A stretch of DNA of 44,009 nt, taken from the NCBI GenBank assembly GCA_903929765.1, contig CAIYVX010000032.1, positions 1 to 44,009 on the forward strand, read 5' to 3'. The DNA is from an uncultured Planctomycetia bacterium. Its GTDB lineage: Bacteria; Planctomycetota; Phycisphaerae; FEN-1346; JAACEH01. A program made the position numbers and the translations under genes. Below the pieces are notes generated by a model. The model worked only from the letters and a program-made list of their open reading frames with translations, was not told the DNA's origin and searched no databases. This document shows positions 28,098 through 32,400 of the stretch, piece after piece (position 1 is the stretch's first letter; each line of letters starts with the position of its first letter).

Positions 28098-28301
28098 TTA
28101 CAGAAACGGCCAGCCTACATGAAAAGCCAGCATGGCGTAGTAATTGGTCAGGATTTTCATCATGGCGCCCGAGAGCACAATCAGCGGGATGCCGACCGCG
28201 GCCAGAACCAGCAGGTAGTCCATCATACCGCCGCGCTCATCGCGGTGCAACCGCAAGGCGGCGTCGCGACAACGGAGAATAAAGTTCCGGGCGGCGCTCA
28301 T
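28098..28301 (-). CDS. Second Flp-like pilin with altered cleavage site
   Basis: The 67-residue protein shares the leader module (RLHRDERG) and hydrophobic helix (YLLVLAAVGIPLIVLSGAMM) with the neighbouring pilin. The processing region, however, reads GGMMDYLLV: Asp-Tyr instead of Glu-Tyr and one residue closer to the Gly. The tail is short and hydrophobic (FHVGWPFL). It may be a minor pilin, a modulator, or a diverging copy. Its ATG overlaps the stop of the upstream CpaF gene (ATGA), with only a weak ribosome-binding site, so it is probably made by translational coupling. Confidence 0.8.
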   Translation of the reverse strand: MSAARNFILRCRDAALRLHRDERGGMMDYLLVLAAVGIPLIVLSGAMMKILTNYYAMLAFHVGWPFL

Positions 28302-29461
28302 GGTTGGCTCACACTCTTAGTATCGGCAAAAAAGGGTGCCAAACTCGGCAGATCCTGGGCGAGGACGCGGGCCTGGACTTCGTCCAGGAGGGCCGTGCGG
28401 GCGCCGGTCCAGGCCAGGACGCCCTCCTCAATCTTCCGGCCGCCCTCGGGGAGTTTCAGCGTGAAGATGTCTTTCATCTGGTAGCGGTACTCGGCATCGA
28501 CGGGCAGGACTTCGGTGATTTGGACGACGCGGCGCGAGGCGTCGTGGAAGCGCGACATGATGACGACGATGTCGATGGAGGAGGAAATCTGGGTGCGCAG
28601 GGCGTTGAGGGGAATGGCCACGTCGCTCATCAGGGCCATGGTTTCGAGGCGGTTGAGGGCGTCGGTGGGCGTGTCGGCGTGCATGGTGGACATGGAGCCG
28701 CCGTGGCCGCTGGTGAGGGCCTGAATCAGGTCGAGGGCTTCGCCGCCGCGCGTTTCGCCGACGATGATGCGGTCGGGCCTCATGCGGAGACTGTTGCGGA
28801 AGAGTTCGCGAATGTCGATGGCGCCTTTGCCGTAACGGTCGGGGCCGCGCGTTTCGAGCTGGATGACGTGGGGCTGGCGAAGCTGAAGTTCGCTCGATTC
28901 CTCGATGACGATGATGCGTTCCTGCGGCGGGATGAAGGTGGCCAGGGTGTTCAGGACGGAGGTCTTGCCGCTGGAGGTGCCGCCGGCGAAGAGGATGTTC
29001 TTTTCGGTCTCTATGGCCACGCGGAGATAATCGAGGGCCATCGTGGTCAAGGTGCCGCACTCGACCAGGTAATCGACGGAGAAGCCTTCCTTGGCGAACT
29101 TGCGGATGGTCATGCAAGGGCCGATGCGGCTGCACGGCGGCATGGCGACGTGAACGCGCGAGCCGTCGGGCAGGCGGGCGTCGATCATGGGATAGTCGGG
29201 GGCGAGGCGCTTGCCGACGAATTGGAGCAGGTTGCGAATGGCGGCGATGAGGGTCTCTTCGTTTTCGAAGCGGGCGTCGGTCTTGACCAGTTGGCCATGC
29301 TTCTCGATGAAAATCTCGTCGGGTCCGTTGATCATCACTTCGACGACCGAGGGGTCGGCGAGGTAGGCTTGAATGGGTCCGAGAAATTTGGCCAGAGTCC
29401 GCCGGAAGATCTCAGCCGGATCAATCATCTCCGCCGTCAGAGCTTCTTTCTGGTCCGCCAT
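28298..29461 (-). CDS. CpaF/TadA-type ATPase (second copy, no FHA)
   Basis: The 387-residue traffic ATPase has Walker A GGTSSGKTS (about 160-168), an Asp-box (VIEESSELQLRQ), the [17 protein letters not shown] Walker B region and STMHADTP His-box. It lacks the FHA domain and long linker of the copy at 16997 and the two differ clearly in sequence. GGAG lies upstream of the ATG at 29461. It heads the Tad locus and overlaps the second pilin gene. The two ATPases may drive assembly and retraction separately, or this one may serve a different export step. Confidence 0.94.
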   Translation of the reverse strand: MADQKEALTAEMIDPAEIFRRTLAKFLGPIQAYLADPSVVEVMINGPDEIFIEKHGQLVKTDARFENEETLIAAIRNLLQFVGKRLAPDYPMIDARLPDGSRVHVAMPPCSRIGPCMTIRKFAKEGFSVDYLVECGTLTTMALDYLRVAIETEKNILFAGGTSSGKTSVLNTLATFIPPQERIIVIEESSELQLRQPHVIQLETRGPDRYGKGAIDIRELFRNSLRMRPDRIIVGETRGGEALDLIQALTSGHGGSMSTMHADTPTDALNRLETMALMSDVAIPLNALRTQISSSIDIVVIMSRFHDASRRVVQITEVLPVDAEYRYQMKDIFTLKLPEGGRKIEEGVLAWTGARTALLDEVQARVLAQDLPSLAPFFADTKSVSQP

Positions 29462-29824
29462 AAAAATCTCCGCCCCAATTGACTTAAACGCCGAATCCGG
29501 GCCAAAATTTCGGGAAAAATCGGCTCAGAAGCAAAAGCTTGTGCGCACTTTCATCGCCCCTATGCTCTTGAGCCATGAGGTACACTGTAATTGTAGCCCA
29601 AGAAGGCAAGACAAACAACCGCATTTTTAATCGGTGAAGCCCGCAACACTGCTGGAGGATGCTGTTTCTTCTATCACTGTTGCTGCTTCTCACAGCCGCG
29701 TAGCGGCTAAAAGCCCAGCAGGAAAATGACGGACTGTTTGACTCCCGAAACCACAGATAAGTAAGGCGTCCCCGGAATTCCAAGCGGGCGCGGAGCGACC
29801 GGCGACGCCGATAAAATCACTATA
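29462..29824. other. Intergenic stretch upstream of the Tad locus
   Basis: No convincing gene is seen. A 20-codon frame at 29575-29637 (MRYTVIVAQEG) resembles the first residues of HicB-type antitoxins but stops at once. A short AGCCGC/GCGGCT hairpin lies near 29694-29708. The Tad operon promoter should be here, but I could not identify a convincing one. Composition is more AT-rich than the Tad genes. Confidence 0.4.
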
Positions 29825-30166
29825 CTAGGTACCGTCCTTTTTGGACACACGCCTCAGGACGTATGGCCCCTTCCCCCAGGCGATACCCATAGCGGACAGC
29901 CCTAAGACTCCCACCGCAACGATCGACACCAGTCCCAATACAGCTGGCACCGCGAATCGCCGGCAGATCTCGTCGGCGATACCAATCAAAAAAGCTGTGC
30001 CAACCCCCGTCACTGTGATCCATGTGTTGCACCGGAGTTCCGCACCGCACCCGCAGCATCTTCTTCCGAATGGCCAGATGCCAAGTCGATTGCGCCGCGT
30101 AGCACCGAACGCGTCCCATGGCCAGATGGCAAAGGGGAGCTTCTCGCCACATCCAGGACACTTCAT
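29825..30166 (-). CDS. Small zinc-ribbon membrane protein, unknown function
   Basis: The 113-residue product begins with a CxxC zinc-ribbon half (MKCPGCGEKLPF), followed by a second knuckle RRCCGCGAELRC. It then has two hydrophobic segments (about 46-60 and 66-92, the second LGLVSIVAVGVLGLSAMGIAW). AGGAGA stands ahead of the ATG at 30166. I recognise no specific family; such proteins are common orphans. A GGGACAGTCACC repeat lies immediately upstream of the ribosome-binding site and the gene sits in a rearranged zone, so it may have arrived recently. Confidence 0.65.
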   Translation of the reverse strand: MKCPGCGEKLPFAIWPWDAFGATRRNRLGIWPFGRRCCGCGAELRCNTWITVTGVGTAFLIGIADEICRRFAVPAVLGLVSIVAVGVLGLSAMGIAWGKGPYVLRRVSKKDGT

Positions 30167-30185
30167 GTCAGCTTCTCCTACTGGG

Positions 30186-30222
30186 AAACCAGGGACAGTC
30201 ACCTATTTCTAATTTACTGTCC
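30186..30222. repeat. GGGACAGTCACC repeat, copy 1
   Basis: AAACCAGGGACAGTCACC and TATT (30186-30207) are followed by ACTGTCC (30216-30222), which pairs with GGACAGT. The duplicated dnaK end begins at the next base. Confidence 0.7.
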
Positions 30223-30320
30223 TTTTATTCCACACTTTTCAGCGCCAGCCGCCGGGCTTCGTCGGTGACGGTCTGGGCGTCGAGGCCCCCGGAGCGGGCC
30301 ATTTCGGTGGTCATGGTCTG
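30223..30320 (-). pseudogene. Duplicated 3' end of dnaK
   Basis: This 98-base stretch matches 30578-30675, the true end of dnaK, with only three differences that I can count. On the minus strand it encodes the last 31 codons and the stop of DnaK, with no start. It is bounded on both sides by GGGACAGTCACC repeats. The near-identity means the duplication is recent. Confidence 0.9.
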
Positions 30321-30378
30321 AAACCCGGGACAGTCACCTATTACTGGGCCGCATGAGATTAAATGGTATACTGTCCCC
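30321..30378. repeat. GGGACAGTCACC repeat, copy 2
   Basis: AAACCCGGGACAGTCACC and TATT (30321-30342) are followed 28 bases on by ACTGTCCCC (30370-30378), which pairs with GGGACAGT. The full unit can fold as a hairpin. Confidence 0.72.
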
Positions 30379-30486
30379 GATTATCCGACCTGGTGCATCG
30401 GAATGACAGTTGCATAGCGATATGCATAAGCATATCCATAACGACGCGAGAATAGCGACTTTCTTGCATTCGTGTGTCATTAACAT
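30334..30486 (-). CDS. Short lipoprotein-like frame, possibly a truncated gene
   Basis: A 50-codon frame starts with MLMTHECKKVAILASLWICL, a basic n-region and hydrophobic stretch, then CISLCNCHSDAPGR, where a Cys follows Ser-Leu as in a lipobox. A strong GGAGGA lies eight bases before the ATG. The frame runs into repeat copy 2 and stops inside it. It could be a small lipoprotein or the 5' end of a gene cut off by repeat insertion. The start signals look genuine; the end does not. Confidence 0.35.
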   Translation of the reverse strand: MLMTHECKKVAILASLWICLCISLCNCHSDAPGRIIGDSIPFNLMRPSNR

Positions 30487-30511
30487 CGCACTGTCCTCCT
30501 CTGCCAAGTAG

Positions 30512-30533
30512 AAACCCGGGACAGCCACCTATT
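30512..30533. repeat. GGGACAGTCACC repeat, copy 3
   Basis: AAACCCGGGACAGCCACC and TATT, one base different from copies 1 and 2, located between the dnaK stop and the lipoprotein-like frame. No matching ACTGTCC arm is seen beside it. Confidence 0.65.
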
Positions 30534-30579
30534 AAATTCCTCTCCCCCGACCGCCCAAGCAAACCTTGTGGAATCTGTT

Positions 30580-32136
30580 TTATTCCACGCTTTTCAGCGA
30601 CAGCCGCCGGGCTTCGTCGGTGACGGTCTGGGCGTCGAGGCCGCCGGAGCGGGCCATTTCGGTGGTCATGGTCTGGCCGGTCTGGACGTCGAGGGCGGTG
30701 ATGTGGACGCGGCCCTTGGCGTCGTAGCTGAAGGTGACTTTGACGGGAGCGCCGGCGGGGCGGCCGGCCGGGAGGCCGGTGACGCGGAACTGGCCGAGCG
30801 TGATGCAGGCCTCCGGGTGCGGCGCGTCGCCCTGGACGATCTGCATGACGATGGACTGCTGGCCGTCGACGGCCGTTTGGTAATTTTTGGCGATGCTGGC
30901 CGGGAGGCGGGAATTTTTGCCGATGATCACGTCGTTGCGATATTCGAGGGTCTGGTGGTCCTTGATAATCAGGCCCAGGGCGTGGGCGGCCACGTCGCTG
31001 GTGTGAATGCGCCCGAGCTTGGCGGCGACTTCGGCGCTGTATTCGGTCAGGCGGTCCTGGCTGTGGAACTCGATGATGGCGGCATGAATGGCGGCGCCCA
31101 TGGCCACGGCGTCGTCGACCGGGACGGAGAGTTCGACCGGCCGGCCACTCATCTGTTCCAGGAGTTTCATCACGGCGGGCATGCGCGTCGAGCCGCCGGT
31201 CGGGACCACCCGCTGCACGCCGGACCAGGTGACGCCGGCTTCTTCGAGCACGAGGTCGGTGGTCAGTTGGGTCATGGCCAGGAGGTCGGCGGTGAGCGAT
31301 TCGAACTCCTCGCGGGTGACTTCGTAGTTGCCCCAGTGGCCCTTGTAGGAAACGGGCACGCGGGTGGACTGGCGGCGGCTGAGGGCTTTCTTGGCCTCCT
31401 CGGCGGTGAGGTTGAGGTAAGCCAATGCAGACCTGTCCTGGCGAGGATCGACCTTGAACTCCGCGCAAAAGCGCCGGGCCAGCTCGTTGACGAGCCGCTC
31501 GTCCCAATCCTTGCCGCCGAGCTGGACGTCGCCGTCGGTGGCCAGGGTGATGAGTTCGTGGCCGCGCTTTTCGATGACGGTCACGTCGAAAGTTCCGCCG
31601 CCGAGATCGTAGACGATGAAGACGCCGTCCTGCCCGCGGCCGCTGAACCCGTAGGCCAGGGCGGCGGCGGTCGGCTCGTTGATGATGTCGATGACCTGGA
31701 GACCGGCGATGGCTCCGGCGTCTTCGGTGGCTTTGCGGCGGGCGTCGTCGAAATAGGCGGGGACGGTGATGACGGCCCGTTCGATGGGGCCGACGTGGCG
31801 GGCGGCGTCCTGGGTGATCTTGCGGAGAATCAGGGCGCTGACCGATTCGGGCGTGTAATTTTCGCCGTCGACGGCGAAATGGAATTTGGAGTCGCCCATG
31901 GAGCGTTTGACGTTGAAGACGGCGCGTTCGGGGTTGACGAGGGCTTCGCGCAGGGCGTCCTGGCCGACGAGGACGTTTTCCGGTCCGAAAAAGACGATCG
32001 ACGGCGTACGCAGTTCGCCTTCGGCGTTGGGCAGCACGACCGGCTCGCCGGCTTCGTGAACCTGGGCGACGCTGGAGAGCGTGGTGCCCAGATCGATGCC
32101 GACGGCGCGGCTCATTTTTGAATCGCCCTCGCCCAT
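30580..32136 (-). CDS. dnaK: Hsp70 (DnaK-type) chaperone without lid domain
   Basis: The 518-residue product has a complete Hsp70 nucleotide-binding domain: VGIDLGTTLSSVA, VITVPAYFDDARRKAT, NEPTAAALAYG, YDLGGGTFDVTV and PTGGSTRMPAVMKLLEQ. A beta-type substrate-binding domain follows (to about residue 510). The alpha-helical lid of standard DnaK (about 640 residues) and the EEVD-like tail are missing. It is therefore a short Hsp70 paralogue, perhaps with specialised clients, rather than the housekeeping DnaK. The ATG at 32136 has AAAGGCGG upstream; an ATG at 32115 (MSRAVGI) is an alternative. A consensus promoter lies at 32192-32219. A J-like membrane protein is encoded nearby. Confidence 0.92.
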   Translation of the reverse strand: MGEGDSKMSRAVGIDLGTTLSSVAQVHEAGEPVVLPNAEGELRTPSIVFFGPENVLVGQDALREALVNPERAVFNVKRSMGDSKFHFAVDGENYTPESVSALILRKITQDAARHVGPIERAVITVPAYFDDARRKATEDAGAIAGLQVIDIINEPTAAALAYGFSGRGQDGVFIVYDLGGGTFDVTVIEKRGHELITLATDGDVQLGGKDWDERLVNELARRFCAEFKVDPRQDRSALAYLNLTAEEAKKALSRRQSTRVPVSYKGHWGNYEVTREEFESLTADLLAMTQLTTDLVLEEAGVTWSGVQRVVPTGGSTRMPAVMKLLEQMSGRPVELSVPVDDAVAMGAAIHAAIIEFHSQDRLTEYSAEVAAKLGRIHTSDVAAHALGLIIKDHQTLEYRNDVIIGKNSRLPASIAKNYQTAVDGQQSIVMQIVQGDAPHPEACITLGQFRVTGLPAGRPAGAPVKVTFSYDAKGRVHITALDVQTGQTMTTEMARSGGLDAQTVTDEARRLSLKSVE

Positions 32137-32258: not shown

Positions 32259-32298
32259 GCGCGGCGGAGTGAAGAAGAAGCAGCAAAAGAAACAGCAC

Positions 32299-32338
32299 AC
32301 CCTCACCCTACCCTCTCCCCTCAAGGGAGAGGGGTGAA
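32299..32338. repeat. Repeat element, CCCTCACCC type (copy 4)
   Basis: CCCTCACCCTACCCTCTCCC, then CTCAA, then GGGAGAGGGGTGAAG. It lies in the leader of the FHA gene and is followed by a two-hairpin variant. Confidence 0.85.
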
Positions 32339-32350
32339 GAAGAAACAGCA

Positions 32351-32400
32351 ACCCTCACCCGGCGGCTGAAGCCGCCACCCTCCCCCAAGGGGGAGGAGTG
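32351..32400. repeat. Repeat element, two-hairpin variant (copy B)
   Basis: CCCTCACCC, then GGCGGCT/AGCCGCC, then CCCTCCCCC pairing with GGGGGAGG. It corresponds to 3092-3144 and ends 15 bases before the FHA gene start. Confidence 0.8.

What the first reader, a model, noticed from the sequence alone, without database searches (positions are those of the whole stretch)
30186..30533. Three GGGACAGTCACC repeats each directly ahead of a different cargo
Read on the minus strand, AATAGGTGACTGTCCCGGG-type repeats stand immediately before the lipoprotein-like frame, the dnaK fragment and the zinc-ribbon gene. Two copies have a pairing ACTGTCC arm. The form resembles REP elements moved by IS200-like (RAYT) transposases, though no transposase is in the window. 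The repeated [repeat + cargo] pattern suggests successive insertions at one hotspot.
Basis: partly seen in the sequence, partly recalled or inferred. Interest (0 to 1): 0.55.

Follow-up and report, generated by a model that had tools for sequence, protein, structure and literature searches.

The report
Orphan transposase-end repeats beside dnaK
Three short repeats beside a chaperone gene in a planctomycete are most likely leftover copies of the end sequences of a small, known kind of transposase gene, and two of them enclose a stray copy of the chaperone gene's tail; this is mostly ordinary.

Summary
In detail: AAACC(A/C)GGGACAG(T/C)CACCTATT occurs three times (30186, 30321, 30512), same strand, none expected by chance. 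It is a dispersed repeat, with 12 places within one mismatch of its 16-base core in the own genome. In the class, GGGACAGTCACC brackets IS200-like (Y1/HUH) transposase genes: 11 genes in 10 genomes on both sides and 2 more on one side, of 25 RAYT-like genes held. So the RAYT-type reading is right in kind. The closest published description is the TIR repeats of TIRtrons (Di Nocera 2013), not GTAG-tagged REPs.

The own genome's two RAYT-like genes carry other end repeats, types B and C. Both types also lie in the same 1.1-kb spacer, where three order-level relatives have about 100-250 bases. The site is a nest of RAYT-type repeats; the transposase matching the three copies was not found.

The 'cargoes' do not behave as mobile cassettes: one is a 98-base, 97% copy of the adjacent dnaK end, one a 50-codon frame, one an orphan small gene. 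How the dnaK tail was copied is open. A one-ended transposase event is possible but unproven, and local duplications are not clearly enriched at these repeats.

The parts
30186..30207 (+). type A repeat, copy 1 (AAACCAGGGACAGTCACCTATT), with an ACTGTCC arm to 30222
30321..30342 (+). type A repeat, copy 2 (AAACCCGGGACAGTCACCTATT)
30512..30533 (+). type A repeat, copy 3 (AAACCCGGGACAGCCACCTATT)
30223..30320 (-). 98-nt copy of the 3' end of dnaK, between copies 1 and 2; 95 of 98 identical, frame and stop codon kept
30578..30675 (-). the corresponding stretch of the intact dnaK gene
30366..30378 (-). type B repeat (GGGGACAGTATAC), also found beside the own-genome RAYT-like gene at C84
29757..29772 (-). 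type C repeat (GGGACGCCTTACTTAT), the kind found on both sides of the own-genome RAYT-like gene at C82
29635..29685 (+). degenerate copy of a high-copy intergenic hairpin element (type H)
30334..30486 (-). 50-codon lipoprotein-like frame whose stop lies in repeat copy 2; no Pfam match, no second DNA copy found in the genome
30580..32175 (-). intact dnaK (Hsp70) gene, longest frame
28298..29461 (-). secretion-type ATPase gene (CpaF-like; name recalled, not scanned) that directly follows dnaK in three relatives

Best explanation
The three repeats are orphan copies of the terminal repeat of a group of RAYT-like (Y1/HUH, IS200-related) transposases that recurs in this class of Planctomycetota. In intact units inward-facing copies (or inverted pairs) bracket the transposase gene; elsewhere single copies, inverted pairs and short tandem runs lie scattered, as expected of a non-autonomous repeat that the transposase cuts and rejoins on single-stranded DNA. 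Here copies have accumulated in the dnaK-ATPase spacer together with copies of two other RAYT end repeats. During that history 98 bases of the dnaK end were copied and left between copies 1 and 2. Shown: the repeat, its link to transposase genes in relatives, the nest of families, the longer spacer, the dnaK copy. Inferred: that a RAYT moved these very copies (acting in trans, or since lost), and whether the same process copied the dnaK tail.
For: Own genome: 7 exact 12-mers against 0 for the reversed control; 12 places within one mismatch of the 16-mer, the window's three included. Class: the exact 12-mer is in 163 of 397 genomes, up to 38 copies in one, while the reversed control never exceeds 3 in a genome. 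Of 25 RAYT-like proteins extracted from all loci held, 13 have the repeat (at most one mismatch) within 300 nt: both sides in G033, G099, G146, G215, G223, G234, G237, G267, G268 (two genes) and G381; one side in G069 and G276. In 9 of the 11 the nearest copies face inward, 52-92 nt before the start codon chosen and -30 to +110 nt from the stop; in G033 and G099 they are inverted pairs. The tree splits the 25 into two sides (100/99); all 13 lie on one, both own-genome RAYT-like genes on the other, with end repeats C (both sides, C82) and B (one side, C84, near a contig end). The three of these proteins that were scanned match Pfam Y1_Tnp above its cut-off and NCBIfam REP_Tyr_transpos below its cut-off (68-71 of 80 bits). 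Spacer: 1,118 nt here, about 100, 250 and 170 nt in G007, G003 and G004.
Against: No transposase of the type-A group was found in the own genome (96.18% complete); the best hits are the type B and C genes at 45-48% identity. No near-identical empty site is available: relatives are at 66-78% protein identity, and the ATPase gene was seen next to dnaK in only 3 of the 7 genomes with a close dnaK. The sample of transposases is biased: genomes were chosen for holding the repeat, and only part of their Y1 hits was fetched. 4 of the 17 proteins on the type-A side lack the repeat, and the label needs 3 changes on the tree. Copies 2 and 3 of the window fold little or no better than shuffles.
Confidence: 0.83

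Rival explanations
1. On the dnaK copy. One-ended capture: a RAYT used one repeat as an end and a chance site about 100-200 bases inward as the other, so that repeat plus adjacent DNA was copied next to itself. The dnaK tail between copies 1 and 2 would be such a product.
For: Doubled blocks that have a type A repeat at an edge extend to the inner side of that repeat at C10 of the own genome (103 nt, 96%), in G217 (206 nt, 95%), in G099 (229 nt, 100%, with the transposase gene's own end) and in G063 (127 nt, 82%, transposase end between two repeats), as does the dnaK stretch from copy 1.
Against: Post hoc. The G099, G063 and G069 cases can be plain, internally deleted transposase units. Two further duplications near a repeat, in G069 (L285) and G063 (L206), lie on its outer side and do not hold it. 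Local duplications are not clearly enriched at the repeats: 21 of 105 have an end within 60 nt of one, while 3.3% of bases do and each duplication has four ends. Copies 1 and 3 have different spacers before the dnaK stretch (15 and 44 nt), so the block is not a simple copy of the present flank. No excision product was seen.
Confidence: 0.2
2. On the dnaK copy. Ordinary duplication and recombination: a local duplication of the dnaK end, by slippage or recombination between short repeats, with repeat insertions before or after it.
For: Needs no transposase; enrichment of duplications at this repeat was not clear. The break points share at most a base or two.
Against: The copied block is bounded exactly by repeat copy 2 on one side and lies 15 nt from copy 1 on the other.
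Confidence: 0.6
3. Mobile gene cassettes: each repeat carries its own passenger gene into a hotspot.
For: Three different stretches follow three repeats; at C59 a 373-aa frame runs across one repeat and is followed by an inverted copy.
Against: No passenger other than the dnaK stretch had a second copy (40 of 42 candidates scored), that one is the tail of the neighbour gene, the zinc-ribbon-like frame is found in 1 of 298 genomes, the own one, and the repeats at C59 face outward, opposite to single-copy transposase units.
Confidence: 0.05
4. The repeats are regulatory or transcript-end signals of the dnaK region, kept for that use.
For: They lie just past the dnaK stop, and copy 1 can fold.
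Against: No terminator-like site found (0, against a mean of 1.6 in shuffles), no Rfam match, and the same repeat occurs beside other genes and once within an open frame.
Confidence: 0.07

Closest known systems
TIR repeats of TIRtrons with TIRYT (RAYT-like) transposases, Di Nocera et al. 2013 (PMC3733652, passages read)
   Same: Inverted repeats on both sides of a Y1/HUH gene, dispersed copies as singles, dimers and clusters; their shared motif GGGGWSAS is fitted by the GGGGACAG form seen beside several transposases here.
   Different: Window copies read (A/C)GGGACAG, with three G; no cognate transposase found in this genome; a word-start search for GGGAC in that paper's text found none, but its figures, which hold the repeat sequences, are not held.
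REP / BIME / REPIN elements with TnpAREP (RAYT)
   Same: Short dispersed repeats, inverted pairs, Y1 transposase between copies in relatives.
   Different: No GT[AG]G tag; two of three window copies fold poorly.
IS200/IS605 insertion sequences and derived miniature elements
   Same: Same transposase superfamily.
   Different: No element with two defined ends and a transposase gene in the window; the three transposases scanned match the REP-associated family model, though below its cut-off.

Membership tests
TIR repeats of TIRtrons (Di Nocera 2013) | Y1/HUH transposase gene bracketed by inverted copies of the repeat | tested here: met
   Met in relatives: 11 genes in 10 genomes, both sides. Not met in the own genome, where no type-A transposase was found.
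TIR repeats of TIRtrons (Di Nocera 2013) | motif fitting GGGGWSAS | tested here: inconclusive
   GGGGACAG in transposase-flanking copies of G069, G099, G223, G234 and G267; window copies have AGGGACAG or CGGGACAG.
TIR repeats of TIRtrons (Di Nocera 2013) | copies dispersed in the genome away from the transposase | tested here: met
   12 places within one mismatch in the own genome; 32 exact copies in G033, 4 of them at its transposase.
REP sensu stricto (GTAG-tagged) | GT[AG]G tetranucleotide at the foot of the palindrome | tested here: not met
   GT[AG]G in the 20 nt before, or its complement in the 20 nt after, the core in 22 of 172 distinct copies from other genomes and 3 of 14 own copies; no such tag in either consensus.
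REP sensu stricto (GTAG-tagged) | stable stem-loop | tested here: inconclusive
   The AAAATAGG..CCTATTTT form folds well (z -4.33); window copies z -2.18, -1.46, +1.32.
REP sensu stricto (GTAG-tagged) | cut and rejoined by the cognate TnpAREP | not testable with these tools
   Needs purified enzyme.
Cargo-carrying transposon or gene cassette | same passenger with the repeat at more than one place | tested here: not met
   Only the dnaK stretch has a second copy in the own genome, and that is the neighbour gene (40 of 42 candidates scored).

The most novel reading that the evidence does not exclude
A RAYT-type terminal repeat can act alone as one end and pick up the adjacent 100-200 bases on its inner side, including ends of host genes such as dnaK, and lay the block down next to itself, so that RAYTs duplicate host gene tails rather than only their own repeats.
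Probability: 0.17. Interest if true: 0.55.

Novelty: new member of a known kind. Interest (0 to 1): 0.3.

Why it matters
It ties a repeat found in 163 of 397 genomes of one class to a definite group of transposases, and shows a genome that keeps the repeats although no matching transposase was found in it. If the dnaK tail was copied by a RAYT, these proteins, usually seen as domesticated repeat-spreaders, would also reshape host gene ends.

Tried and rejected
Cargo cassettes: looked for second copies of the passengers in the own genome and for relatives of the zinc-ribbon-like frame in the class; none. One search scored only 40 of 135 candidates because of the high-copy hairpin element, so it was repeated without that stretch (40 of 42 scored). 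The lipoprotein-like frame was searched as DNA and against Pfam only.

GTAG-tagged REP: tested on aligned copies and rejected. RNA family or terminator: none.

General link between repeat and duplication: scanned 262 non-redundant loci (690,198 bases, 206 repeat hits within one mismatch); 105 local duplications, 21 near a repeat, 11 of these with at least 40 nt outside the repeat. Not convincing as enrichment.

One clade of type-A transposases: the tree needs 3 label changes; a single clade is not rejected (p-AU 0.13) but not shown.

A remnant transposase end at C62 was checked as a possible lost cognate; it ends in another repeat type (D), so it gives no support for that.

Literature: three searches; one search was swamped by unrelated ray-tracing papers, one search returned one paper.

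Full report
Observation. The window (contig C32 of a 3.83-Mb, 116-contig assembly) holds three copies of AAACC(A/C)GGGACAG(T/C)CACCTATT at 30186-30207, 30321-30342 and 30512-30533, all on the same strand, with no other match at up to 3 mismatches and none in 100 shuffles. A 98-nt stretch between copies 1 and 2 (30223-30320) repeats the end of dnaK (30578-30675) with three differences; on the minus strand it keeps the reading frame and stop codon. The named relatives found by dnaK are four Planctomycetota MAGs at 67-69% identity.

A dispersed repeat. In the own genome the exact 12-mer occurs 7 times against 0 for the reversed control. The 16-mer occurs at 12 places within one mismatch; at up to three mismatches there are 23 places against 7 for the control, so the loosest matches are partly chance. 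Of 397 genomes of the class 163 have the exact 12-mer, up to 38 copies in one genome, and the reversed control never exceeds 3. In G033 there are 32 copies, 16 on each strand, most of them in inverted pairs.

Link to transposases. In G033 a Y1 transposase gene lies between two such pairs. I took flanks of part of the Y1 hits in relatives and extracted 25 RAYT-like proteins by a sequence pattern from all loci held, the own genome's two included. 13 of the 25 have the repeat within 300 nt at one mismatch or less: 11 on both sides (10 genomes), 2 on one. Of the other 12, 9 have some other GGGACA or GGGGAC string in the same span, not all of which need be repeats, and 3 have none. In 9 of the 11 two-sided cases the nearest copies are single and face inward, with CACC towards the gene; in G033 and G099 they are inverted pairs. 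The sample is biased towards genomes that hold the repeat. On the tree all 13 lie on the side of 17, and both own-genome RAYT-like proteins on the other side of 8 (support 100/99). Three proteins were scanned (G033 and the two own): all match Y1_Tnp and, below its cut-off, NCBIfam's REP-associated tyrosine transposase.

The own genome. It has 8 Y1_Tnp hits, none on the window's contig. The two RAYT-like ones carry other repeats: type C (GGGACACCTTACTTAT) on both sides at C82 and type B (GGGGACAGTATAC) on one side at C84, whose other side is close to the contig end. Scanning the whole window for types A, B, C, D and the hairpin element H gave six matches, all within 29640-30533: A three times, B, C and H once each. 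H is a hairpin element with 40 further places in the genome at the cut-off used (19 of them looked at). A search with a type-A transposase found only the two genes and weaker fragments. So the type A copies are orphans in the assembly, or their transposase lies in the missing few per cent.

The site. dnaK and the ATPase gene are 1,118 nt apart here. In three order-level relatives they are adjacent: counted from the alignment ends, allowing for the stop codon and the unaligned ATPase start, the gaps are about 100 (G007), 250 (G003) and 170 nt (G004). In the other four genomes with a close dnaK the ATPase gene was not in the stretch held. These are not near-identical empty sites, but they agree with DNA having been added in the window.

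The cargoes. Apart from the dnaK copy and the repeats, no stretch of the spacer gave a second copy in the genome; other matches were weaker than E 0.2 (40 of 42 candidates scored). The zinc-ribbon-like frame has no match in the other 297 genomes searched and no Pfam match above cut-off. The lipoprotein-like frame is 50 codons long and stops inside repeat copy 2. In single-copy transposase units the CACC end of the repeat faces the gene.

The dnaK copy. Blocks of repeat plus inner flank are also doubled at C10 of the own genome, in G217 and, with transposase gene ends, in G099 and G063. In G069 a doubled start of the transposase gene ends at the repeat, and the second copy breaks off within it. 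That fits one-ended action of a RAYT, but ordinary duplication and internally deleted transposase units fit too. Two other duplications lie on the outer side of a repeat (L285, L206), and duplications are not clearly enriched at the repeats.

Known or new. Di Nocera et al. 2013 (PMC3733652; passages read) describe RAYT-like genes flanked by inverted repeats unrelated to GTAG REPs, with dispersed copies and a shared GGGGWSAS motif, and name them TIRtrons; they mention a plethora of such genes and flanking repeats in R. baltica, among others (a planctomycete, recalled). The 2018 survey of the superfamily (PMC6006769; passages and one section read) notes classes with atypical flanking structures. 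Cutting by TnpAREP at dinucleotides beside the stem-loop is shown in PMC8266576 (passages read). I file the window repeats as new members of this known kind. In three literature searches (open-access papers only, listings seen) no title was on copying of host gene ends by RAYTs; only aimed at that question, and narrowly.

Noticed in passing
window 29635-29685 and 40 further places in the own genome: High-copy intergenic hairpin element TGAAGCCCCCAGCACTGCTGGGGGATGCTGTTTCTTCTTC, often set in T/C-rich linkers.
   Followed up: partly
L012 (G000:C106:35923-35938): A type A repeat lies within a 272-codon open stretch and would add residues such as IGDCPYFE without breaking the frame.
   Followed up: no
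L017 (G000:C59:48310-49659): A 373-aa frame of unknown kind runs across one type A repeat and is followed by an inverted copy; both repeats face outward.
   Followed up: partly
L322 (G000:C62:40282-40455): The tail of a RAYT-like gene alone, followed by a fourth end repeat, GGGACGGAGCACTAATTA (type D), also seen in G063.
   Followed up: partly
L241 (G063:C64) and L239 (G099:C465): Small blocks made of the last codons of a RAYT-like gene with type A repeats: enclosed by two repeats in G063, tandemly doubled with 100% identity in G099.
   Followed up: partly
L177 (G049:C1:4158350-4160800), L174 (G017), L251 (G381): Other RAYT-like genes are flanked by their own GGGGAC-type repeats (GGGGACATCACTCTTTTC, GGGGGACACCATAC, GGGGACATTCTACTTTTT), suggesting a superfamily with a fixed GGGGAC start and a variable rest.
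   Followed up: no
L223, L224, L225, L247, L248, L259, L266, L292: In these eight two-sided type-A units the upstream repeat lies 52-59 nt before the start codon chosen; the downstream one overlaps or nearly touches the stop codon in seven of them (110 nt away in L225).
   Followed up: no
window 30568-30588: Inverted repeat GTGGAATAAAACAGATTCCAC spans the dnaK stop codon on the minus strand; its second arm is missing from the 98-nt copy.
   Followed up: no
window 32290-32400: Intergenic block with CCCTCACCCTACCCTCTCCCCTCAAGGGAGAGGGG-type repeats that also occur beside the hairpin element elsewhere in the genome.
   Followed up: no
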